Assembly: GCF_002443255.2 (NCBI RefSeq)
Contig: NW_019211459.1
Span: forward strand, 2,867,751 to 2,931,750
Source of the DNA: Varroa destructor
Taxonomy: Eukaryota; Arthropoda; Arachnida; Mesostigmata; Varroidae
Direction of reading: 5' to 3'
DNA length: 64,000 nucleotides
Both the position numbers and the translations under genes were made by a program. This document shows, piece by piece, positions 233-44,000 of the stretch (position 1 is the first letter of the stretch; each line of letters begins with the position of its first letter). The notes below the pieces were generated by a model. That model did not search any database, was not told the origin of the DNA, and saw nothing but the letters and a program-made list of their open reading frames with translations.

Positions 233-1380
233 TCATGAACTCGTGATAGCCATGCTATTCAACAATTCGGTTTTCTCAATGTTTACCGCAATACTTTTTC
301 TCAGAGATCGCGCAAAATCGGTCTCGCCTTCGTTTGTTTGATCTTTACGTCTACACGTCGACACGCTAGCAGCGTTACAGCCGATGCCAAAAAGGTCAGT
401 AGTTTCCGTCAACGATTCCTGACGGAATGATCTTTCTGTCTCGAAGGATTGCGCCGATGAGTCAGTGCTGTCGTAGAGCTTTGCATTGTCGATCACGCGG
501 CGACTGCCACAGATTTGCCCAGAATACCTGGTAACAATCAACGATTCATTGCTAAGCTTCTCCGAACTAATACTTTGACATTTCGTTGCCAATGGACGCT
601 TTAGTGATCCTTCTTCATCTGTCGGGGCTGAACAGCGTCGACTCCCAATGTCGGGATGCTGATGAGGGTTATAATAACTATTCTCAATATTATTGTTATT
701 CCTGCTGCTCGTATTGTTACTATTTTGAGTCGCGTACGCGGCGGTGACTGTAACTGTTTTCTGGCTTGGTATCTTAAAACTACCGTAGATATCACATTCT
801 GAATTTGGTACATATCGCTGTCGCTGTCGTCCACTGTTCCACGTGGATAAAGATGAATGGACGGCTAATTTAAGCGCTGGTCGTAGTTTACAATGTGGGC
901 CACTCGTGTTACACGCTGCTTCAACAACTGTTGATCGACGGCTTCTGGCGAACGCGGCCCCACCGTCCCTAAAACCCGATTGCCGCTGTCTCCCTTTAGA
1001 ATTCCGTAAGCTGCTTTTAAGGCTTATGCTATTCTTTTTGCCCGATGAGGCTTCCTGCAATTGGCGGTGTCTTCGGGCAGCGTTTGTCGCATTTGACACT
1101 GTCTGGTCAAGGCGCAGCTCAGCAACATGTGCTGGCCTGGCATCGCACCTTGATCCAATTGAGGTTTCCGTGTGATAACTTTGCAGAGTTCGCTCGATCA
1201 TATTCGAGTACTGATGATTTTCGTGTAGACTGTTGTTGTTATTGCTATCGCCTTCCTGAAAAAGTTGCCCTCGGATCATACGCAGCTCTTTTTGGGACTG
1301 AGAAGTTTGGCTTGCCGCTGATTCTGCAATACTTCCGCTTGACACTGAGTGCTGGCCTGTTTGCTGGAGCAACGTAACAC
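233..1380 (-). CDS. 3' exon of a Ser/Asn-rich unknown protein
   Basis: This is an open frame of about 380 codons on the minus strand. It begins after a strong acceptor (pyrimidine tract ending TATATTTTCAG at 1381-1383), and the first two bases complete a codon split by the intron. The encoded stretch is rich in Ser, Asn, Gln, Arg and Thr, with an asparagine run (DSNNNN near the start) and a second Asn cluster (SRNNNNIENS) in the middle, so it is probably disordered. No catalytic motif or membrane segment is visible. It joins in phase to the exon at 4569-5203, across a 3188-bp intron: that exon ends with one base and this one starts with two. The frame either ends at the TGA at 233-235 or leaves through a donor at 348 to the exon at 1-174. 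Function is unknown; possibly the tail of a signalling or scaffold protein. Confidence 0.72.
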
Positions 1381-1435
1381 CTGAAAATATACAGAAGCGT
1401 TATTGAAAAAAATCATTTTCACAAAGCTCAACGTC

Positions 1436-1517
1436 TAGCCGCTCTTAGCGGCTAAGACTATAGCCACTAGCCTCGTCGCCCCCTTAAACCTTTTCTCAGT
1501 TCCGCTAGTGGCTATAG
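1436..1517. repeat. Two inverted repeats inside the intron
   Basis: A perfect 8-bp hairpin with a 3-nt loop (arms 1436-1443 and 1447-1454, TAGCCGCT/AGCGGCTA) is followed by a perfect 14-bp inverted repeat (arms 1458-1471 and 1504-1517, CTATAGCCACTAGC and its complement, loop 32 nt). This lies just upstream of the acceptor of the exon ending at 1380 on the minus strand, so it would be transcribed as intron. It may be a remnant of a foldback element or a local RNA structure. Confidence 0.6.
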
Positions 1518-4500
1518 CCCATCCTAGATTTTACCGCGTCAAATTTTGGAACAGCGAATACGAATATCATATAGCGAAACAAATGGCAATTTTAACGAAA
1601 AAAATCCGCATTACGTCACTGATCTATATGCCAGCCGATTACTCCAGGTCTGCTTCTAATACGGAATTGTTACACGACGATGGGGAGCCGAGTGTACACA
1701 GGGGTACCTGTACGCTTGCTCAGCTGAATAACGAGATGCAGAAAATTTTTCAATATGAGGCGTAAATGTGTCTCCTATTGTTGTACGACACAAAGAAAGT
1801 TAAGTGGTAAAGCATGATAACCCCAGTGAGCGGACGATGCTCACTCATCCCGGCGCAGATACCAAAGCGTCTCCTCCGTCTGCAAAAGTGCTACCAACAT
1901 ACGTGTGAAAGACCATCTAGTTAAGATCTGAAGCTTTTACCATGGGCTTCGCGTTAAATGTAGTGCACGTGCTTATGTGCAATAAAACAAGAACGAGAAT
2001 CTAGCAAAATACATATTAAAAAAAAAAAAACAATTATATTTGTACGATTAAAACACAATACGGTTTCTGGCATATGGGCTACCTTTTCTAAGGAGTGAAT
2101 TTCTATATATATGGGCTATATAGGAGCTATAGGAGTATATTTCTATATATATAATATATATGGGCGCTTCTCTCTCGGTAGTGTTCATACCTACATAACA
2201 TTTCAATAAGTACGCGGGACTATTTACAATGTCTGTGTAATCCGGAGTTGTGTTTACACTACTCTGAATATTCCGTATTTTAACGTCCTTACGCGCTTAA
2301 GTAAACGTGTCTAAATTGAAAGTTGTTTTTCTATTGAGAAAGACTGTGTATAAATAAAAATAGATATATTCTTTTATGCGCTAAAAGTTTCGCCGTTTTC
2401 AATATGTTCTTCCTTTAGTTGGTAGACAACTTCTTCATACAAGGGTAACTGTGCATTAAGCGGCATTGGCAGGTGTGAGCTTATAGATTCAACCCTGACC
2501 TGCTAGCAGACTAAAAGACCCAAAAATCAAAACGGCAAAGATGTCCGAAAGGTGTAGAGTATATCTGGGCGACCCAATAGGCAATTGGCATTATCTTCTA
2601 TAAAACGGCTACTCATTGCTGTAGCAAAGACACAGGTGCATTAAAGACTGCTCTTTAAATTATTCTTATACGTTCTCAAGCTATTTTTTTCAGTTTTTTT
2701 TTATTCAAATTCCATTCAAGATGTCGCAGTTTGCTTGAAGTTTTCACGAAATATATAAGAACTCCCATGGAAACTGAATATCAATTTAAGGAAAAAGGGT
2801 TCACCCAGTGCGGAAACATTAGACAACAGCATCTCCATTCAACTTCCGACATAAGGCACTTTAGTTCGCCATGACGAGTTTGTTCTAACGAGAAGTGGCT
2901 TTCGTTTAGTACCAGGAGTAGCCATGCCCACCAAACAGCCAGCCAAGTTTTTTCACAACTTAAACGCATGACGTTGTATGTATATATATATATATATGTA
3001 GAGTTCCGAAGAAGTTTCCGGCTGATTTCGTCCTTCTCTCCTTGAGTCTGTGATCAGGTTCGGGCTGGCAAGTTATCGAACAATGAACACAACAATGTAC
3101 ATGGTTTGTTACGACGAAACTTTACAGTTTGAAATGGTGCTTACTTTTCTCGAAAAGCTACTATTGAGATAGGTAGTTCATCGGGGTGACGCTCTACAAT
3201 GGTCGCACAGTATGAATGACGCTTTATCGTTAGCACGGGAGCCACTGAGGGGATTGATCAAGAAATTCACACACATTAGCTCTTTCGCCATAGAATCAGG
3301 CCATGAACGCGACAAACCAATCGAACGAGTTACAGCATCGTTATGGTAAAAAGCAGTGTGGACGCCGATCGAACGGCCACAACATGGACAATCCGGTCTG
3401 ACGATGTATACTCCGCAACCTATTTTCAAAACAACAGATACACTGTTATTTTTACAACGATGGTATCATTCGGCCATTTTTCTTCGCAGTTACAACTAAT
3501 GACGAGCTCCATCAAGACATGCTGCGAACCTTTTCGTTAACCGAAATGAGAGAGCACTGGATGCGAACAGCCTTTGGTTTCGACAAGGTAAAACGTCTTG
3601 CCACGAAGCGCACGAAACAATCAGATTGATCTTTGCATCGTTAATTACGATGGTTCGTTTCGGTATGCGTCGATAACAGGGAGTGTCCGCTCTAGTCTTG
3701 TGATTTGACTTCTTAGGATTTTTTCTTGTGCGTTCATGCGAAGAACAGAAACGCTGCTGCCATTAAAAAATTACCGTTTTTTTTTTTACACTTCTGTGAA
3801 GTGATGTGAAACGGGCTCTTTCAGTGTAACTGCAATCGTAAATTTGGAGCTTTCTTCCGGCTCGAGCGCTTGCAAGGACGCTTCTGCCTTTCCGTACATT
3901 AAGCGGACTAGTAAATGTAATCTGCGAACCCATGTAGGCATCTTAGCTTCTTTTTATTAGCAACCATAAGTTTAATTGACCGTTCAATGGGAAACGACGA
4001 ACCAAATAAGACAACGCGCCTCGGCAGATCCGGCGCTCACCGATACTTACACTCCTGTGAGAACTTCATCAGCTCGTAGCCCGTTAACCATCCCCATCTC
4101 AAAGATCAAGCGGAGCATATCCAATATCTTTTTCTCCCGTTTGTACGCTTGTTATGGGGCTTGAACCTGCGGTTCTGTTGAGTATCTCAAACGTCGATTC
4201 TGGCGATTAATGTAGCCCATGAATATATCTATGTGGGCTGGTTAGTGTCATTGGACGTATGGTATTTAACGTGCGTGTTAATTATTGCAGTTATTGTCAG
4301 CTTATATATGGCCGCTGCGCCTATTTCTGCCCTTATCTATAGTTAATCATAGTAACTTTATTGACACACATGCTCATCTATGTACTGTACATTATGCATG
4401 TAAAGCAGTAAACTAAACGGCCTCTTGCGGACAGTCGAAGGTCAGCAAAAGTTAATAATCTCTTCATTCGTCTCACATGTCGACCACAGTTAGATACGAT

Positions 4501-4568
4501 CTGAACATCAAGTTCTCAGTGAAGTAATGTCGTTGATAATTTTCAAGATAGCGCTGTCACTAACTTAC
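1518..4568. other. Intron between two host exons; no gene seen
   Basis: AT-rich intron of the minus-strand gene. It holds poly-A (about 2019-2030), an imperfect TA/GG-containing repeat at 2100-2165 and a (TA)n run at 2980-2998. A plus-strand open frame at 1508-1765 has no ATG start and is antisense to the intron. I see no other coding signal. Confidence 0.5.
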
Positions 4569-5203
4569 CATTGGCTGTAACTAACGTATCTGGCCCCCTA
4601 CCGGCGAAGTGCAGTAGTCTCGCAGGTCGTCCGCAATGTGTGCCACTCAGCCTTAGCAGACTGCCAAAGCTACTATCGGCGTCGCTACTTCCACAACCTA
4701 ATCGCATTTCAGAAACACCACAGCTACCGCGCAGCTCCACCAAAGAGCAACTCGCTTTAACCCCCGCCATTCCGGCCCGGGTAAGACGTCGACCCGGCGG
4801 CCAGATTCGCGAATGAAGACCGTTCTGTTGTGCTTCTTGCTGGAGGTGCGTCGGCTGGGAACTTGGCGTATCCATTAATCGGAAGCTGCCGGCGTGATTG
4901 ATGCGAGGAATATATACCGCCTTATCAATATGGAGTGAAGAATAACGGCCGGTGCACACTCCCGTCAATTGAGGACAAGTTGTTTCAAATCTTAGTTGTT
5001 GACGCGGCAGTCGTGCGCTATTCGTCTGTAAGGTATCTGATTCGTTTTGCTTAAGGGCTGCACATTTCGTTTGAGATGCCATTGATGGATCGACGAGTAC
5101 TACTTCGTGAGATAACTGATCGGTTGTTCCTGAAGCATTCCCTCCGCCTTCCCGAAGGAGTTCCACCGAGCCCGCTCGTATCCTAATGCTATCATCAGGG
5201 CTG
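4569..5203 (-). CDS. Internal exon of the same unknown gene
   Basis: Minus-strand exon of 635 nt (one base, 211 codons, one base) without a stop. The acceptor is clean (a tract like GCTCTTTGTCTACTTTGGTTACAG), with a branch-like CTAAT upstream. The donor is ATG|GTAAGTTAG at 4568-4567. The peptide includes SPDDSIRIRAGSVELLREGG near the start and a Ser/Gly/Cys-rich second half (RLGCGSSDADSSFGSLLRL). Its end phase (one base) matches the start of the exon at 1380, and its start phase (one base) matches the end of the exon at 16568-16650. The acceptor is an AG-C-AG tandem (5205-5204 and 5202-5201), which could yield isoforms differing by one residue. No family was recognised. Confidence 0.7.
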
Positions 5204-8200
5204 CTGTAACCAAAGTAGACAAAGAGCCATTAGGTCAATCTAACGCCTAAGCGCTTATCAGTCTGACAACCGCAAACTCCTGTATACGTCTATTGTTAAG
5301 AATTGCGCTATAACTATCTCAAATACCAAAAAAAGTAGTCAGGCCACAAAGTGGTTCTATATGTAACTGTTAGCGAAAAGCGTTTCCACTTGCGACACAT
5401 AAGTTCTGCGCTACTTGAGAAGAAACTGTTTCAGGTAACGGGACCTACATTATTCTGCCTTGAAGTTTAAATTGCATGCAAATTTAGTATCGATAGTGTG
5501 TATATTAACGCAGCGGTAATTTCCTGGGTTATCACAGTACGGACCTGTGCCTACGTCTCATACTGTTACAATCGTCATCGCGCCTGTTTGCGCTGATATC
5601 CTCGCTGACGTTTGGAGTCTAGGAACGACAGCTGCTGTTGGACATCGGCGTGCCACCCGCCACCTGTCATCATTCGCCTCCCCTGCCCACATGGAGTCGC
5701 ATAGCCCGTTATGCACTTTAGGCCAATTGGCTTGGCGCCACCGAGTCTTTCTTTTGTATTAAGGATCCTCGTAGGCAACAGTTGGTCCTGGTCGAGTAAG
5801 CTAAATTAGCTGCCTAATAGTTGGTAAATGTCAACGTATCTAGCCGTCTATGACCCCCACCACTTTAACAGACGCATAGCTCTATACATCGCAGCCACTA
5901 AGATGAGCGCGCACGCGTAAAGTATCTGCATAAGCCTTACTACTGCAGTATTCGTATGTTAGCTCTCTTTCCACGGTTCACGTCCCCACTCATTGGTCCC
6001 ATTTCGTGTGGTTTAAAAGAAAAAATCTTGATGAATGATACTAACTAAACGACAATAATGGCAGCTGTAGTCGTCGCAGAAACTGCAATAATGCTGATGC
6101 TTAATGCTGACGCTGTCGCAGAAAGTAACTTGTCGGTGTACGCTGCAGATCAGAAGAGTGACTTACTCGTTCCCCTTCGTACATATTGGAACCCATCGAT
6201 CGAGAGCGACTGATCCGAAGCTTAGATCGTCAATATGCCAACAGGCGCTCGTTCATCGCCAGCGGAGACATATGTACCTCTTCTATCTATGCCTGCCAGC
6301 AACCGAATGAGGGGACACTTCAGAAAAGCGAAACGCAATAAAATAGAAGGAAAAACACACGGAAAGGTACATAGAAGGTGAAGCGAACATGAAGCGAATG
6401 AGTCCCATACGTCATTATCCAGATCGGAATCGGTGACCGGTTTCAATCCAGTGTGGAATAAGCGATAGCAAAATGGCAACGGCTACAACAAGAACAACGT
6501 TGTCGCGAATGGCGACGGTACCGCCACCGACCATGCTTACGAAAATGAAGGCACGAAAAAATTTCCACATAGCCGCTTTAATGTGTTACTCGTATTCAAT
6601 AGTAGCATGCGCACGTATGATGGCCCGCCAACAGATAGGCATGCACGCAAGAACGCTTCCCGTACGACACACGCACGCTCCTAAATGTCTCCTTTCGGCG
6701 TTATTGTGCTTGTTGTACGCTATGATGTGATTCTACTGTGCTTAAACTAGTTTCCTGTTTATCAGATAAATCGGGTGTATATTCTCCAATCGGACAGAGA
6801 ATGACGGTAGACAAAAGCGTACCCAGCTATGTAGCGTCAGCTAGAGAGCACACACCTGTACTATATAATAGCAGAATAGACGTTTTTGAAATGTTCAGTG
6901 TACGCTCAATGTCAATTTTCACTATTGCTTATCAGAGATCTTTAATAATTAATCATCGATCCAACGTATAATAGTTACTTTTATCGATAAATGTTCCTTG
7001 ATAGAAAATTGACCACACAGTTTTTGATTCGAGCCGGAACAGCAGGCCGTTTCCACGAAAGTTCGGCTGTTTTGCCAGTCCTTAATCTTGGCCTAAATAA
7101 AATCTAGTTAAAAATCCTATAGGATAGAGAAATGCTACTGGTTTTGTTGAAGTTCCTCTCCGCACCACTTGGTATATGTTGTATTTTCGCGGTTTAGTAC
7201 ACATAATTGCAAATAAGTGCTTCGGGCTTTATGTCCGTAAAGCATTGTTTACAACTGAATCCAATTAATCACACATAATTCTATAAATTCAATGAAAATA
7301 ATTAAAAAATTGCTGGACCAAACTCGGGACCGAACCGGTTTCGCCAATAGGAACCTACAAGAACAATTCTAATTGTGCTCGTTTTCCCGTGGTGCGTAAT
7401 ATCGATCATGTTATACTGGCAGCTTTGCAATTCTGCTTGCTTGTGAACTTCGATGGGAAAAAAACGAGGTACGATAGCTTCCATTTCAAGATAATGTTGT
7501 TTTTGATTTAGAGCGAAATATGAATCGCGGAACATTGGAATAGATAGATGAGAAATACCTGTGTGAAGCAAGGCTGACGTTGTTTCGGGGGTCTTCACTG
7601 TGTTTATTAGATGAAGAACAATACCCCTGCGATGAGCATATCATCGGGTCACATTCCTGAAACACAAATAGAAATGAAATTGCCTTTAAATCTGCTACTA
7701 CTACCAGTTCCCAAATGGGAACACTCTCAGATAGTGACTCGGAAAGTTAGTGACCTATGAAGCAGGAAGGACATAGCGCATATGTGGGGGGTGACTACAA
7801 ACGCCCGAGTCGCGCCACCGAAAAAAAAATAGACTTATTACAGTTAAGAAATTCTACGACTGCGTCAACTTTTCCCATGTCACACAGGCTTATGTCTCAT
7901 TTACTACCCGTTACTACAACGAAGTACATAATGAGCTAAAAGATTTTAAAGTTGCTTTTATAAAGAGAAAAGACATGCGGGGGCTGTGTGATATACGTGA
8001 GGGGTCAGTCGTTATGAAGCCATCGCTCTATTGTTGTCACTCGCCAGATGCCACAACTGGGTACAGATACACTCTCAGATTTAGTATGTCGTACGCGGGA
8101 GGTGCGAAAATAAGTTTGACGTGTTGTAGCATCACCATAATGTAGACAGCGAAAAAAGTACGTTTTAATTAGAAATCGCTAATTAGACCTTGATCACTAT

Positions 8201-38877: not shown

Positions 38878-39068
38878 TAAGCCAAAGAATATGACCATGG
38901 GAAATGGCGAGCTAAGATGGTAAAGTTTCACATATGCACAGATGTATGCATAATACCAGTCGATACCGGTGTCTAGTAAACAAACGGATGTTTGTTACGA
39001 ATGCTAGCTAATAGCGGCCGAGAACGTAGCGGCTGATCAAAGAAAAATTACAGTGCCCTTATTCACGT

Positions 39069-39090
39069 AGCGTCGATATATATCGACGCT
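39069..39090. repeat. Perfect 22-bp palindrome beside the viral element
   Basis: AGCGTCGATATATATCGACGCT is an exact palindrome. It is about 155 bp from the 3' end of the Rep pseudogene. It may mark the edge of the inserted segment or be unrelated. Confidence 0.75.
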
Positions 39091-39245
39091 AATTCGCAAG
39101 CGTCTGTGCAAACAATATATTCTAGGCGCTGCCTTCCAGTTACACACCAGTAAGTAGTTTAGGAACTTTTATCTCTTCGACGGATGACTGTGTACGTGTG
39201 TATATGCAGCCACGTTTTACGCTCCTGCTCCGACATTTAAACACA

Positions 39246-40182
39246 TCAGTAAATACTTAATTTTGATAATAACAATAATTCACACCAGCTGTTATCTTGA
39301 AACTTTTCCACAATTGTCCACAGGACATAGAATAGACGAAATGCTGTCCTAGTCGCATAAGTATTGCATCCTAAGTTAGTATATATTTTTTTTTTACAAG
39401 CGTGCCAGCACATGAAACCAAACACAGTCGTCGAATTAGAAGTTATGAAAATCCATTCAGCTAAAAAATTCGCAAAACTTCCTTTAATGGGGACTTTATA
39501 GGGGTATCTATCTGCTATTTTTAATAATTCATCGTATTTGAGCCAACCATAAAAATCATCAATTATAACGGCTTTGTGGTTACAGTAACCGTCCCACCAT
39601 TCTCCTCTTGTTTTATAAAATGTCAGATCTTCACCAAATAGTTTATCACATATCTGTCTGACACCAAAACTTTTGCCGGTCCCTGGGTATCCATAAACAA
39701 TACACAATTTTGTGCGATAGTTTCGTTTAGCTCCTAATTTAAGGGTAGTTGCAAGATCACGTATGCCTCTTCGAAATTTTATAAATGCAACTGGATGCGA
39801 TTCAGCCACAGCGCCAATGGGATCGTCCTGATTATTCAAAAGGGTATCTACAACGTTGTATAAGTCATTTCGCTGACCGTGCGAATTTAAACGCCCGTGT
39901 TCCTCATAATGACCGCCTTTTTTGACGGTTTTTTTCTTCTTCTTCACTTGCTTTAGCAATTTCGATGTGTGCACGTTCACTAATTAGTGCTTTGAAACGG
40001 TCCAATGATGTTGGTAATTCACGGCTAGCATACCCTTGGAGGTGTGGCGTTCCTGTATTTGGGGCAGTTTAGTAACCCCATACGATGTAACGAAATTGTC
40101 CTACGTTTTCTTTGATTTCATCTTCAGTATAGTTGTTTAGGGTCCATGCAGCCCTGCGGAACATCATTTGACGGGCGGCCAT
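39246..40182 (-). pseudogene. rep: Endogenous CRESS-DNA virus Rep (replication initiator), broken
   Basis: This is an old copy of the Rep gene of a circovirus/cyclovirus-like virus. Rep nicks the viral origin, starts rolling-circle replication and unwinds DNA with a superfamily-3 helicase. From the ATG at 40182, endonuclease motif I (WTLNNYT, 40129-40146) is followed by a TAA at 40069-40071 that interrupts the frame. Motif II (HLQG, 40033-40044) follows in the same frame. The reading frame then shifts near the A-rich tract at about 39910-39945, and the Tyr/Cys of motif III are not present. Downstream, one frame holds Walker A (YGYPGTGKS, about 39669-39692), GEWWDGY, Walker B (VIIDDFYGW, 39541-39572) and motif C (ITSN, 39435-39446). 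It ends at 39246 after a divergent tail. Total length (about 312 codons) is normal for the family. The lesions show it cannot make full Rep; the helicase part alone is still open for 244 codons. Confidence 0.94.
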
Positions 40183-40245
40183 TTTTCTTCTTTGTCCGGG
40201 CGTGTTAAGTCGCTCAGGTCCAGTGTTACCCTGAACGACTTCTAT

Positions 40246-40330
40246 CGTTAGTATTATAGGTATTCTTATCAGTAACGTCACCTCCAATTGCCCTCTCCCC
40301 TACTGGAGAGATATCCACTATATAAGTGGA
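40246..40330 (+). promoter_or_regulatory. Divergent viral intergenic region: TATA box and two hairpins
   Basis: This lies between the divergent Rep and plus-strand ORFs. Two perfect 6-bp hairpins stand in tandem: CTCTCC/GGAGAG (40293-40310, 6-nt loop) and TCCACT/AGTGGA (40314-40330). The loop of the second carries TATATAA-like sequence (CTATATAAG, 40318-40326), a good TATA box about 30 bp before the ATG at 40353. TAGTATTAT at 40249-40257 differs by one base from the nonanucleotide of circular ssDNA virus origins, but no tight stem flanks it, so the origin is not identified with confidence. Confidence 0.55.
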
Positions 40331-40352
40331 CGCTTTGCCCAAACAAGTAGAC

Positions 40353-40613
40353 ATGGATTACGTCAGCAATAGTGCTTATACTCTTGACGATATTATACGT
40401 GGCATGCTTAAGCAAGATTATTTTATCAGAGTACTTAGTTTGGAGTTGAAGAGACTTAAAGGCGATCTTGTTTGTGGAATAGGAAATCATGTGACCGTTA
40501 ATAGGAAGCTTCATATTACAAAACAAGTAAGGAAACGGATTGTTATTGGTGCAGCCAAGGAAGCGTACTGCGAAATATATCACCAGTACTTACATGGAAG
40601 AGCCCTTAGTTAG
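40353..40613 (+). CDS. Unrecognised viral ORF opposite Rep (86 aa)
   Basis: An intact ATG-to-TAG frame starting about 30 bp after a TATA box, divergent from Rep. The protein is small, with a basic middle and C-terminal half (KRLKGDL, TKQVRKRIVIG), three Cys or fewer and no signal peptide or membrane segment. It overlaps the next ORF by 20 nt in another frame, a compact arrangement typical of small DNA viruses. In circovirus-like genomes the gene in this position and orientation encodes the capsid protein, but I cannot recognise a capsid signature. It could be an accessory gene or a capsid fragment. Unlike Rep it carries no lesion. Confidence 0.55.
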   Translation: MDYVSNSAYTLDDIIRGMLKQDYFIRVLSLELKRLKGDLVCGIGNHVTVNRKLHITKQVRKRIVIGAAKEAYCEIYHQYLHGRALS

Positions 40614-40917
40614 AGGACGATATAAACCAATAGGAAAACCGAGTATTGGTAGCGCTATTGCCCATGCTCTCCCTGTAGTTGCAGGGGCGGCCGTTAGAAA
40701 CCCTGGATTCTTTCGAAATTTTATCTACGCGAATCCGCCGTTTGCGGGTCCAGCTGTTTATACTGCTGTTAATATGGCATTACGGAAACGTGTTCTTACA
40801 AGAATTAGGAATCAGCGCCGCAAACGTAGACAGAGCCGTCGTTATATACGGATACTATTAAAACCATGTGTTTTGCTTAAAACGAGGTACAAAGTATTCG
40901 AGTTTCCTATTACATAA
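40594..40917 (+). CDS. Unrecognised viral ORF with Arg-rich motif, capsid candidate (107 aa)
   Basis: An intact ATG-to-TAA frame overlapping the previous ORF by 20 nt. The first half contains a Gly/Ala-rich hydrophobic stretch (SIGSAIAHALPVVAGAAV) and Pro/Phe-rich sequence. Residues about 67-90 form a strongly basic block (RKRVLTRIRNQRRKRRQSRR), like the DNA-binding or nuclear-targeting arm of CRESS-virus capsids. The frame is much shorter than a usual capsid (about 200-350 residues) and its arm is not N-terminal, so it may be a truncated or frameshifted capsid, or a distinct small structural protein. Downstream sequence to about 41040 has shorter open frames in other phases that could be remains of the missing part. 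Confidence 0.55.
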   Translation: MEEPLVRGRYKPIGKPSIGSAIAHALPVVAGAAVRNPGFFRNFIYANPPFAGPAVYTAVNMALRKRVLTRIRNQRRKRRQSRRYIRILLKPCVLLKTRYKVFEFPIT

Positions 40918-41049
40918 ACCAGACGTCACTGGCAAATTGTGTCGCAGGATACGTTTCTTTCGCCCTTCAACTGTAGAGAGTCTATTCTGATACTCTGCCT
41001 TTAATGACCCTGACGGAAAAATCGCGCGAGAAATGGTCCCATATCGCAC

Positions 41050-44000
41050 GGGCGAAAGAGCTACAGTAGGGGCATCCTAAAAAAAACTATACATTCATTC
41101 AGTGTGTTTCAGCGTTTCAAATAGGCAGTGACAAATAGCGTCGTTTCGTTAGAATTTGAGTCGAGCCCATCTAATTTAAAGCAGAAACAACATTTCAACA
41201 TGTCGATAAATGTGGTGATTAGGTTCCTTTAAGTTCGGGTCGGATTTTCCATGTATGGATGCGGTCAGACGACGTTGTAGGTTTCTGATAAGTGTAGCAC
41301 GCGTACCGTGTACACGATACTGTCACAAGCATTGTATCTTAGAATAGTGATTTTATAAATAGCTCGATAAGCTTAATATCGGCCAGTTTATGCAGCCTCA
41401 TGCTTGTATTACTACTACATGGCTAGTGTGATTGAATGGAGAAATAGGTAGACCGTAAAAGTTGTGCTGCTTCATGGTATATTGGAACAAAGTTATGTTT
41501 ATCGTGAGAACCAAGTCTGCACTTTTTCAACAGCTGAAATATATTTGCTTGATATGAAGACTAGGTCTGGAAATCACATAACAACTTTTGTGGTAAAAAC
41601 TAGTTGAATACCTTGTTATTAGTTACGGCATTCTGGTCTGTTAGTCGTAAAGAAACAAGATGGAGTGCCGGACAGCTGATTTGCTGGGGGCGTCAATTTA
41701 ACAATGAGGTCTTGTAATGTTTAGGTGTGCCAATAACAGCTTATTCCAGGAACTATGAATAAACGGGATTATAATGTGGCTTAGAATATAGTCCGACTTC
41801 AGGTCTTTGAGAGAGCATGGCAGCACATTCGACACTGCAGTAGATAGTATACAACTCAAATATGTGAGAGATAATTTTTTCTATAACAGTATGTTTGTCT
41901 TTGATCCTCGTTTGCGAAAGCATGCACTTTGAAATCGTCAACAATAAAAGTATGTTACTTTGCGAAGCATTATGTTTGTTAAATCTAAAACAATTTGTAT
42001 TGTAAGGTTCCTAAATTAGGCCATTGGTGTTCCCTAAACAACTTTGAAGGAAACAAACTCTCTATTACTTGATTTTACACAGAAAAAAAACTACGATCTT
42101 TGAAAAGTGTTTTCCAAAATCAAGTACGACCAACAATGCCCTAAGTAACTGATTTATAGTTGTCGGTTTTGTTTCTAGCACCCCTTCTGGGGGATTGGAG
42201 CAACAGTGCCTTGTATTAACACCATTGGTGCCATCCTATCGCTGTAGAACATTCCAAATGATAAGAGCCGTGTTTCTGCTAGTATAGCCCGCCAACTTTT
42301 TCCGAACTATTAGAAAGTTGTCCGCATGTAAAGATCCGTTCAAATGAAAACTTCCTGATCTTTTTAGAAACATGTTCATTAGAAATCTCCAATTTAGGAT
42401 TCGATGCCGTTAACATTATTTGCGAGTAAAATGTCCCTTTGTAGCATAAAGACCAACGATTCTTAGACTTCTTCCATCACCAAGGGCTTTTTCGTCAGAA
42501 ATCAGTTCTTCATCATCTTCTGTATGGAAGATGCCTCGCGACCTCACATGAACAGGCTAGAAGAGCGCTGCATTCATGAAATTGAGTTCAGACTCATCGA
42601 AAATACACAGACGCATCAGGATGGGTTCTAGGTGACAAAACAGGAAGATCTGAATGAGCATCGTGAGGTACCTGGCGCACCTCTAATACATGCTTTGTAT
42701 ATTACAACGTCATCTTCTTGACCGCAGCAGAGTTAGCATAAGTGTTGTTATAGTAGATCGTTCTATACTTCTATCAATAGGAGTCATACCTTGAGCTTAT
42801 GCTTGGTGCCGCCTCATCTAACAGGGAAGCCTGATAAAATTTTCACTTATAAGCTTTTCGCTGGACATGTTCCTTGTTGATCTACAAGTTGGATTGAAGC
42901 ACGAATTATAGTGAAGCTCATAAGTTTCTCTTTATTAGGAGGTCTGCTATATAGTAGTGTTTTTTTTCCGATTTATCGACAGAAAACCAGTAAAAATTTA
43001 ATTTATAGCAGCCGACAATCATAACTAGGGCACCTATATCAATTACCCTCCAATGAGTCACAAGGTTTTCGGATCCTTTGATTGCGAACCTATTCAGGCG
43101 GTCCTTATGAAAAGCAACTGACTTAACATCTACAAAGTGTCCCCTATCACTATCAGTTGAATTCAGGTTACCACCACTCTTTAGTGTAAACGTTCGCTAT
43201 CCACGCAATTATTGTAACTTCCTATAAACCAAACGACCTGCCGTGTCGGACAAAGGCATGGCGACCTACGCCTGCCTATCGACTTACAAGCGGCCACAGA
43301 CAGGAGATCAAGCAGCCGTCACAGTGTTGTTGAAAATGTAAAAGGTTGAAAATTTCGAAGTGTAGCAGATGCCAAAAAAAATCGGCCTTTTTTTAATGGC
43401 AAAAAAGGCGTGACCTGGTGTTATAAGAGTTGAGCTTTGAAGCGTTGGCGTTCTAGAACGATAAAAAAAAATGAAAGACACAAATGCACATTAATAAACT
43501 ATTAGTAGGCCTATAAAATCAGACGTAAATGAACGAAATATGTGGTAATGTACATATAAAAAGTGTTTACAAAGCGTATACGAAAGCACAATTCACTTTT
43601 TAATTAATTTCGTCCCTCGAATACTGGTGATTTTAGCTCCGTTCATCAAAATCATATGTATTTCATCATAGGAATATAGTTGCTAGTATTTTATAAGCTT
43701 CCAGCGATTCACACAGTTATCAGATATAAGCCAACCATGCAAAAACACAATTGTTATACAATGCATATGGGTCTAGGGGCGGTTCGAGTGGCATTTAAGG
43801 TCATCTGAACTAGACATAAAACATAAACGAACCCTGAGAAAGATAATACCTTTATTTGCTGGCACCTAGAAATAGCTTTCATACCCATGGAGAAGAAACG
43901 GTAGGCTCGTTTCTTTATATCTAGATGTTTACTAAACCGTTTGCTCGTCTCACGCCTACGAAGTGATGACAGCGGCCTATCGTTCTTATCGCGTCCGATT

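What the first reader, a model, noticed from the sequence alone, without database searches (positions are those of the whole stretch)
39246..40182. Fossil CRESS-DNA virus Rep in a host genome
Motif I, motif II and the complete Walker A/B/C helicase core of a circovirus/cyclovirus-type Rep are visible on the minus strand, with an in-frame stop at 40069-40071 and a frame change near 39910-39945. This is direct evidence of a past germline integration of a circular ssDNA virus. The helicase half is still open for 244 codons, which is longer than expected if decay were random and old.
Basis: partly seen in the sequence, partly recalled or inferred. Interest (0 to 1): 0.88.

Follow-up and report, generated by a model that had tools for sequence, protein, structure and literature searches.

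The report
Broken cyclovirus-like fossil in Varroa mite
A broken piece of a small circular DNA virus, related to cycloviruses, sits in the genome of a Varroa honeybee mite (very likely Varroa destructor); it still carries most of the replication gene, a hairpin that is likely the replication origin and part of the likely coat-protein side, and it is probably one of the dozens of such remnants already published from this mite.

Summary
Minus strand 39384-40182 is a damaged Rep gene: Pfam Viral_Rep and RNA_helicase; 73% and 79% identical, in its two pieces, to the uninterrupted Rep P0002. It has a stop at 40069-40071. A frame change at 39917-39922 lies where relatives carry motif III (catalytic tyrosine), which is not found. 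The host is Varroa: the window also holds exons of V. destructor LOC111252247 (99.5-100%). A 12-bp hairpin with a near-canonical nonanucleotide lies at 40207-40241 on the strand opposite Rep, the cyclovirus layout. Two plus-strand ORFs follow: ORF B is 77% identical over 69 residues to a V. jacobsoni gene model, and ORF A shares 13 of 15 residues with a V. destructor one. So about 1.4 kb or more is viral. Its Rep forms a clade beside the main cyclovirus clade, though its nearest named relative is labelled 'Cyclovirus sp.'. The '244 open codons' are 178 Rep codons plus chance flank; one stop and about two indels fit 1-3% neutral change. Such elements in V. destructor were published in 2011 (56 Rep copies) and 2018 (19). 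Not seen: empty site, transcripts, small RNAs, copies in this assembly (genome search did not complete).

The parts
39384..39917 (-). Helicase part of the endogenous Rep, open for 178 codons; Walker A 39669-39692, Walker B 39543-39569, motif C 39435-39452; shortened and decayed after motif C
   Evidence: Pfam RNA_helicase 2.4e-12; tblastn P0002 79% and P0003 63% identity over 182 residues; sequence
39917..39922 (-). Frame change; motif III (catalytic tyrosine motif) is not found here
   Evidence: tblastn pieces of P0002 end at 39922 and restart at 39917 in the next frame, skipping the motif III residues
39922..40182 (-). Endonuclease (HUH) part of the endogenous Rep from its ATG, with motif I 40126-40146 and motif II 40030-40044
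   Evidence: Pfam Viral_Rep 6.3e-8 on 39913-40068; 73-77% identical to P0002, P0008, P0009
40069..40071 (-). In-frame stop codon in the endonuclease part
   Evidence: sequence and ORF list
40207..40241 (+). Probable rolling-circle origin hairpin: 12-bp stem with one mismatch, loop with nonanucleotide CAGTGTTAC at 40221-40229
   Evidence: only hairpin with a loop of the form [N]A[GT]T[AG]TTAC in the window; mean 0.06 per 64 kb in 100 simulated sequences; the pattern was widened to include the letter seen here at place 5. DNA fold z -4.0 for 40181-40350
40319..40325 (+). TATA-like element (TATATAA) upstream of the plus-strand ORFs; promoter role inferred
   Evidence: sequence
40353..40613 (+). 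ORF A, 86 aa, plus-strand viral ORF; shares a short peptide with the V. destructor Rep-collagen gene model; GTAAGG splice-donor-like site at 40527-40532 (use inferred)
   Evidence: 13 of 15 residues identical to P0008 188-202, E 9e-6 for that one comparison; no Pfam match at E 10
40594..40917 (+). ORF B, from MEEPL into an arginine-rich stretch (40774-40845); probable N-terminal part of a truncated capsid gene (inferred)
   Evidence: 77% identical over 69 residues to V. jacobsoni LOC111267637, ending at 40800; no Pfam match at E 10, no PDB match at E 1
236..7644 (-). Host gene LOC111252247 exons that identify the host (236-1381, 4567-5208, 7561-7644)
   Evidence: tblastn of V. destructor P0112: 100%, 99.5%, 100%

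Best explanation
This is a truncated and broken copy of a cyclovirus-like circular DNA virus genome in Varroa mite DNA, likely inserted by host DNA repair during an old germline infection and likely decaying without selection ever since. Shown: damaged Rep, hairpin on the opposite strand, two plus-strand ORFs with matches in Varroa gene models, host exons in the same window, and another record that shares Rep and adjoining bases. Inferred: the virus DNA was in the nucleus of a germline cell as a double-stranded replicative form, was broken away from the origin (between the 3' ends of Rep and the capsid gene) and was joined into the chromosome. The Rep is predicted to be unable to nick DNA, because motif III is missing and the frame is broken; the hairpin would then be inert unless a Rep from elsewhere acts on it. 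The open helicase stretch is explained by a modest amount of change, not by demonstrated function.
For: Rep homology by Pfam, protein search and PDB search. Host exons 99.5-100% identical to V. destructor. P0001 is identical over 94% of the query, through about 90 bases beyond the last Rep similarity, then differs. Hairpin on the strand opposite Rep, as ICTV describes for cycloviruses. ORF B 77% identical to a V. jacobsoni gene model. Lesion load fits 1-3% neutral change. Published precedent in the same species.
Against: Transcription and small RNAs could not be checked, so a role is not excluded. The right-hand junction is not defined: similarity stops at 40800, where the matched V. jacobsoni models turn to other sequence. 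No empty site was seen. The lesion estimate rests on indel rates I chose (0.05-0.15 per substitution); at 3% change the chance that a 158-codon helicase piece stays open is only 0.05-0.22 (0.38-0.61 at 1%), so the fit is best near 1-2%. ORF B as capsid has no profile support.
Confidence: 0.9

Rival explanations
1. The copy is used by the mite as a template for antiviral small RNAs (EVE-derived siRNA or piRNA), so its DNA is kept though its protein is dead.
For: Such use is mentioned for insect EVEs (PMC6069186, passage); V. destructor makes 24-nt antisense viral small RNAs against RNA viruses (PMC10746231, passages); many related copies are published.
Against: No small-RNA data for this locus were available; 'piRNA' has 0 occurrences in the held text of PMC10746231; the lesions need no special explanation.
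Confidence: 0.15
2. The helicase half is exapted: an open Rep ORF is translated and kept by selection.
For: 178 Rep codons stay open; another Varroa copy is in annotated gene models 98.7% identical over 225 residues between two species.
Against: One stop, one frame change at the active site, decayed C-terminal part; low neutral divergence explains the open stretch; no annotated protein of this locus was among the 108 hits, only P0001 from an unnamed source.
Confidence: 0.05
3. The copy multiplied as a selfish rolling-circle element driven by Rep and its origin, as suggested in 2011 for the many Varroa copies.
For: Origin-like hairpin and Rep lie together here; 56 copies reported and the idea raised (PMC3198968).
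Against: Here the hairpin is internal, so this copy's ends are not origin-nick ends; motif III is gone; the same paper says that most Varroa copies have unrelated flanks, which suggests multiple invasions.
Confidence: 0.05
4. Assembly artefact or viral contaminant wrongly joined to mite DNA.
For: Short, undamaged contigs of such viruses can be contaminants (PMC6069186, passage).
Against: Stop, frame change and truncation; another record (P0001, longest contig 3469 bases, 2 member sequences) holds the same Rep with the same adjoining 90 bases.
Confidence: 0.02

Closest known systems
Endogenous cyclovirus-like elements of Varroa destructor (PMC3198968, 56 Rep copies; PMC6069186, 19 elements)
   Same: Same host, Rep-derived, cyclovirus-like; Liu et al. 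describe such elements as mostly in non-coding DNA and variously degraded
   Different: In the passages I read those papers describe Rep only (Dennis: no novel cap-derived sequences; Liu table: the 56 stand in the Rep column; 'stem-loop' 0 occurrences in each main text). Here an origin-like hairpin and plus-strand ORFs are retained beside Rep. Whether this locus is one of theirs was not checked (supplements closed).
V. destructor LOC111248264 and V. jacobsoni LOC111267634 (predicted Rep-collagen proteins P0008, P0009)
   Same: Rep 76-90% identical in the two shared pieces; P0008 shares the ORF A peptide
   Different: P0008 is listed on a 76.9-Mb contig against 32.6 Mb for the window's host gene; motifs I-III are uninterrupted there
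Genus Cyclovirus (Circoviridae)
   Same: Rep and the plus-strand ORFs diverge from a hairpin, whose nonanucleotide is on the strand opposite Rep (criterion: ICTV)
   Different: Rep lies outside a clade of 12 rows, 9 of them named cycloviruses (99/97), though P0006, labelled 'Cyclovirus sp.', is in its own clade; nonanucleotide differs at one place; nearest unnamed relatives sit on 2.3-2.5 kb contigs, above the 1.7-2.1 kb of the family
Endogenous cyclovirus Rep of the ant Pseudomyrmex gracilis (P0036; taken to be CVe-Pseudomyrmex of PMC6069186)
   Same: Endogenous cyclovirus-type Rep in an arthropod
   Different: Falls inside the main cyclovirus clade; listed as intact by Dennis et al.; 48% identical to the window's helicase piece

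Membership tests
Endogenous circoviral element (CVe) | Homology to circovirus or cyclovirus Rep | tested here: met
Endogenous circoviral element (CVe) | Lies in host chromosomal DNA | tested here: met
   Host exons in the same 64-kb window; a second record with the same bases beyond Rep. Rests on the assembly; no reads were seen
Endogenous circoviral element (CVe) | Inactivating lesions | tested here: met
   Stop and frame change
Endogenous circoviral element (CVe) | Orthologous site in a related species | not testable with these tools
   No other mite genome could be searched
Genus Cyclovirus | Origin on the same strand as cp, opposite rep | tested here: met
   Hairpin nonanucleotide on plus strand, Rep on minus; criterion from PMC5656780. 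That the plus-strand ORFs are cap is inferred
Genus Cyclovirus | Nonanucleotide (T/n)A(G/t)TATTAC | tested here: not met
   CAGTGTTAC, one difference at position 5; a decayed copy may have changed after insertion
Genus Cyclovirus | Rep groups with cycloviruses | tested here: inconclusive
   Own clade 98/94 (8 rows, one labelled Cyclovirus sp.) beside a 12-row cyclovirus clade 99/97; the two together are one side against 8 circovirus-side rows at 92/82, and against 18 rows p-AU 0.18; groups chosen after seeing a first tree, no reference Circovirus included
Genus Cyclovirus | Genome 1.7-2.1 kb with small or absent 3' intergenic region | not testable with these tools
   Only a truncated copy is present
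Circovirus-type capsid (Cap) | Match to a capsid family model | tested here: not met
   No Pfam match at E 10 for ORF A, ORF B, two downstream pieces or P0109; no PDB match for ORF B at E 1; only an N-terminal stretch is present
Active Rep (HUH endonuclease) | Motif III with catalytic tyrosine, open frame | tested here: not met
   Motif III not found, stop and frame change

The most novel reading that the evidence does not exclude
The Varroa elements come from an undescribed circovirus-like genus with 2.3-2.5 kb genomes, whose capsid gene has an N-terminal extension (ORF B) and a separate small spliced leader gene (ORF A), and which invaded Varroa germ lines many times; at another locus its Rep was fused to a collagen gene and kept in two mite species.
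Probability: 0.3. Interest if true: 0.6.

Novelty: new member of a known kind. Interest (0 to 1): 0.3.

Why it matters
It is evidence that cyclovirus-like viruses infected the germ line of the main honeybee parasite, and it preserves an origin-like hairpin and the cap side, which the earlier surveys did not describe in the text I read. That gives strand layout and a partial gene map of a virus lineage known here mainly from unnamed Reps, and a start for testing whether the many Varroa copies arose by repeated infection or by copying.

Tried and rejected
Three scans of viral contigs, with the Rep piece, ORF B and a Rep alignment, returned no confirmed relative, so no DNA of a free relative could be compared and no dN/dS was possible. 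The genome search on the window's own assembly was asked six times and never answered, so copies elsewhere in this assembly were not counted. Pfam on 20 other long ORFs of the window gave nothing convincing: one weak row at E 0.05, none. Rfam and tRNA scans were empty. No flanking repeat of 14 or more bases stood out at the element's ends; shorter target-site duplications would not have been seen. A weak Pfam row for the piece 40326-40610 (APP1_cat, E 0.1) was set aside. I considered that the stop and frame change might be intron edges of a live spliced gene: not excluded, but the loss of motif III makes an active nuclease unlikely. I rejected selection as needed for the open helicase half. 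In it the join of the window with the two Varroa proteins alone is weak (87/0). Second tree: 37 of the 108 were chosen after seeing the first, so its clade test is not blind; four named cycloviruses that fell outside the main cyclovirus clade in the first tree (P0035, P0056, P0060, P0070) were not in it.

Full report
What is there. The minus strand from 40182 down to 39384 encodes a damaged Rep. Pfam finds Viral_Rep (E 6.3e-8, 39913-40068) and RNA_helicase (E 2.4e-12, 39249-39980) in pieces submitted apart; a third piece, 40072-40287, gave no family. The helicase piece finds 108 proteins at E <= 1e-3 among 387 candidates and the solved Rep 7lar at E 2.8e-35. Placing the relatives on the window by tblastn gives two pieces in different frames, 40182-39922 and 39917-39384: P0002 at 73% and 79%, P0003 at 49% and 63% identity. 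None of the 189 tblastn rows (E <= 0.01) of the 111 viral-side proteins falls outside 39000-41200.

How it is broken. There is a stop at 40069-40071. The frame changes at 39917-39922, and relatives carry motif III exactly there; it is not found in the window. After motif C the C-terminal part is shortened and has decayed. The listed 244-codon ORF is 21 codons before the frame change in the wrong frame, 178 codons of Rep and 45 codons past the last similarity.

Does the open half need selection? In the three open pieces 4.5-5.6% of single changes make a stop. With 0.05-0.15 indels per substitution, 'at most one stop and at most two indels' has probability 0.20-0.93 at 1-3% change and at most 0.02 at 10%. 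Taken alone, the chance that a 158-codon helicase piece stays open is 0.38-0.61 at 1% and 0.05-0.22 at 3%, which favours the lower values. The indel rates are my assumption, and the second indel (after motif C) was judged by eye. So a copy with modest neutral change explains the ORF; the age itself was not measured.

Host. The stretch 236-1381 (minus) is 100% identical to V. destructor LOC111252247, and two more exons lie at 4567-5208 (99.5%) and 7561-7644 (100%); V. jacobsoni P0113 gives 86% (largely a gap in its model), 99.5% and 82%. I take the window to be V. destructor; V. jacobsoni is not fully excluded. The longest contig listed for P0112 is 32.6 Mb, whereas that for the annotated V. 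destructor Rep protein P0008 is 76.9 Mb, so the two are most likely different loci.

Integration. P0001 (source label lgn, which I take to be assembled public reads; recalled) is 243 aa, 100% identical over 94% of the query, and so shares about 90 bases beyond the last Rep similarity before it differs. A second record thus holds the same Rep-side context; that those bases are host DNA is inferred from their lack of similarity to Rep. The other junction was not defined.

The missed half. Between Rep and the plus-strand ORFs lies a hairpin at 40207-40241 with a 12-bp stem (one mismatch) and CAGTGTTAC in its loop. It is the only hairpin in the window whose loop has the form [N]A[GT]T[AG]TTAC with a stem of 8 or more; 100 first-order Markov sequences of 64 kb gave a mean of 0.06. 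That pattern was widened to admit the letter seen here at place 5. The 170-base region folds well as DNA (z -4.0). ICTV gives (T/n)A(G/t)TATTAC and places the origin on the cp strand in cycloviruses and on the rep strand in circoviruses (PMC5656780, passages; also PMC7184566, passages). Here it is on the strand opposite Rep, with one departure from the consensus. ORF B (40594-40917) is 77% identical over 69 residues to V. jacobsoni LOC111267637 and runs into an arginine-rich stretch, as capsid N-termini do (recalled). No Pfam or PDB match supports capsid. ORF A (40353-40613) shares 13 of 15 residues with the V. destructor protein P0008. Right after that peptide the window has GTAAGG, and P0008 turns to other sequence there; that this is a reused splice donor is inferred.

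Lineage. In a 99-row tree the window groups with the Varroa proteins and P0002 (99/79), then P0003-P0005 (100/97), then 'Cyclovirus sp.' P0006 (98/96). In a 38-row tree this 8-row clade (98/94) stands beside a 12-row clade (99/97) that holds nine named cycloviruses; their union is one side against the 8 circovirus-side rows (92/82) and is not rejected against 18 rows (p-AU 0.18), but it is not shown. 'Circovirus-side' is my grouping, with no reference Circovirus in it, and some named cycloviruses lay outside the main clade in the first tree. P0003-P0005 sit on contigs of 2312-2471 bases. Rep, intergenic region, ORFs A and B and a normal capsid would add up to about that size, which is inference.

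What is known. Liu et al. 2011 (PMC3198968; section 7 and passages read) list 56 Rep-like sequences in V. destructor, closest to cycloviruses, most without shared flanks, and raise the idea that Rep might let copies multiply. Dennis et al. 2018 (PMC6069186; passages) list 19 in V. destructor and 7 in Tropilaelaps, and say that all their new sequences derive from rep. Kraberger et al. 2018 (PMC5834324; whole text) describe two free CRESS viruses from V. destructor: a genomovirus, and one with rep and cp on the same strand, unlike the layout here. I could not match this locus to the published tables, as supplements were not open. Seven literature searches, seen as listings of titles and abstract openings apart from the papers named here, showed no other paper on Varroa cyclovirus-like elements; only 20 of 55 papers were listed.

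Verdict. A real, well-preserved and broken endogenous cyclovirus-like element: ordinary for this host, with an added origin-like hairpin and cap side. Interest 0.3.

Noticed in passing
P0008 (V. destructor LOC111248264 X2) and P0009 (V. jacobsoni LOC111267634 X1); not in the window: Gene models that fuse a Rep N-terminal half (motifs I-III and Walker A uninterrupted) to an ORF A peptide and a collagen-like repeat; 98.7% identical over 225 residues between the two mites. A candidate domesticated fusion gene, so far models only.
   Followed up: partly
   Followed up: partly
window 40527-40532 (+): GTAAGG right after the ORF A peptide, where P0008 turns to other sequence: a virus-derived splice donor may be reused by the host gene model.
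   Followed up: partly
window near 39290: P0001 departs from the window's reading here, beyond Rep, which suggests a small indel and two alleles of this locus.
   Followed up: no
P0003-P0005: Unnamed Reps on 2.3-2.5 kb contigs, larger than the 1.7-2.1 kb of Circoviridae; nearest free-looking relatives of the Varroa elements.
   Followed up: partly
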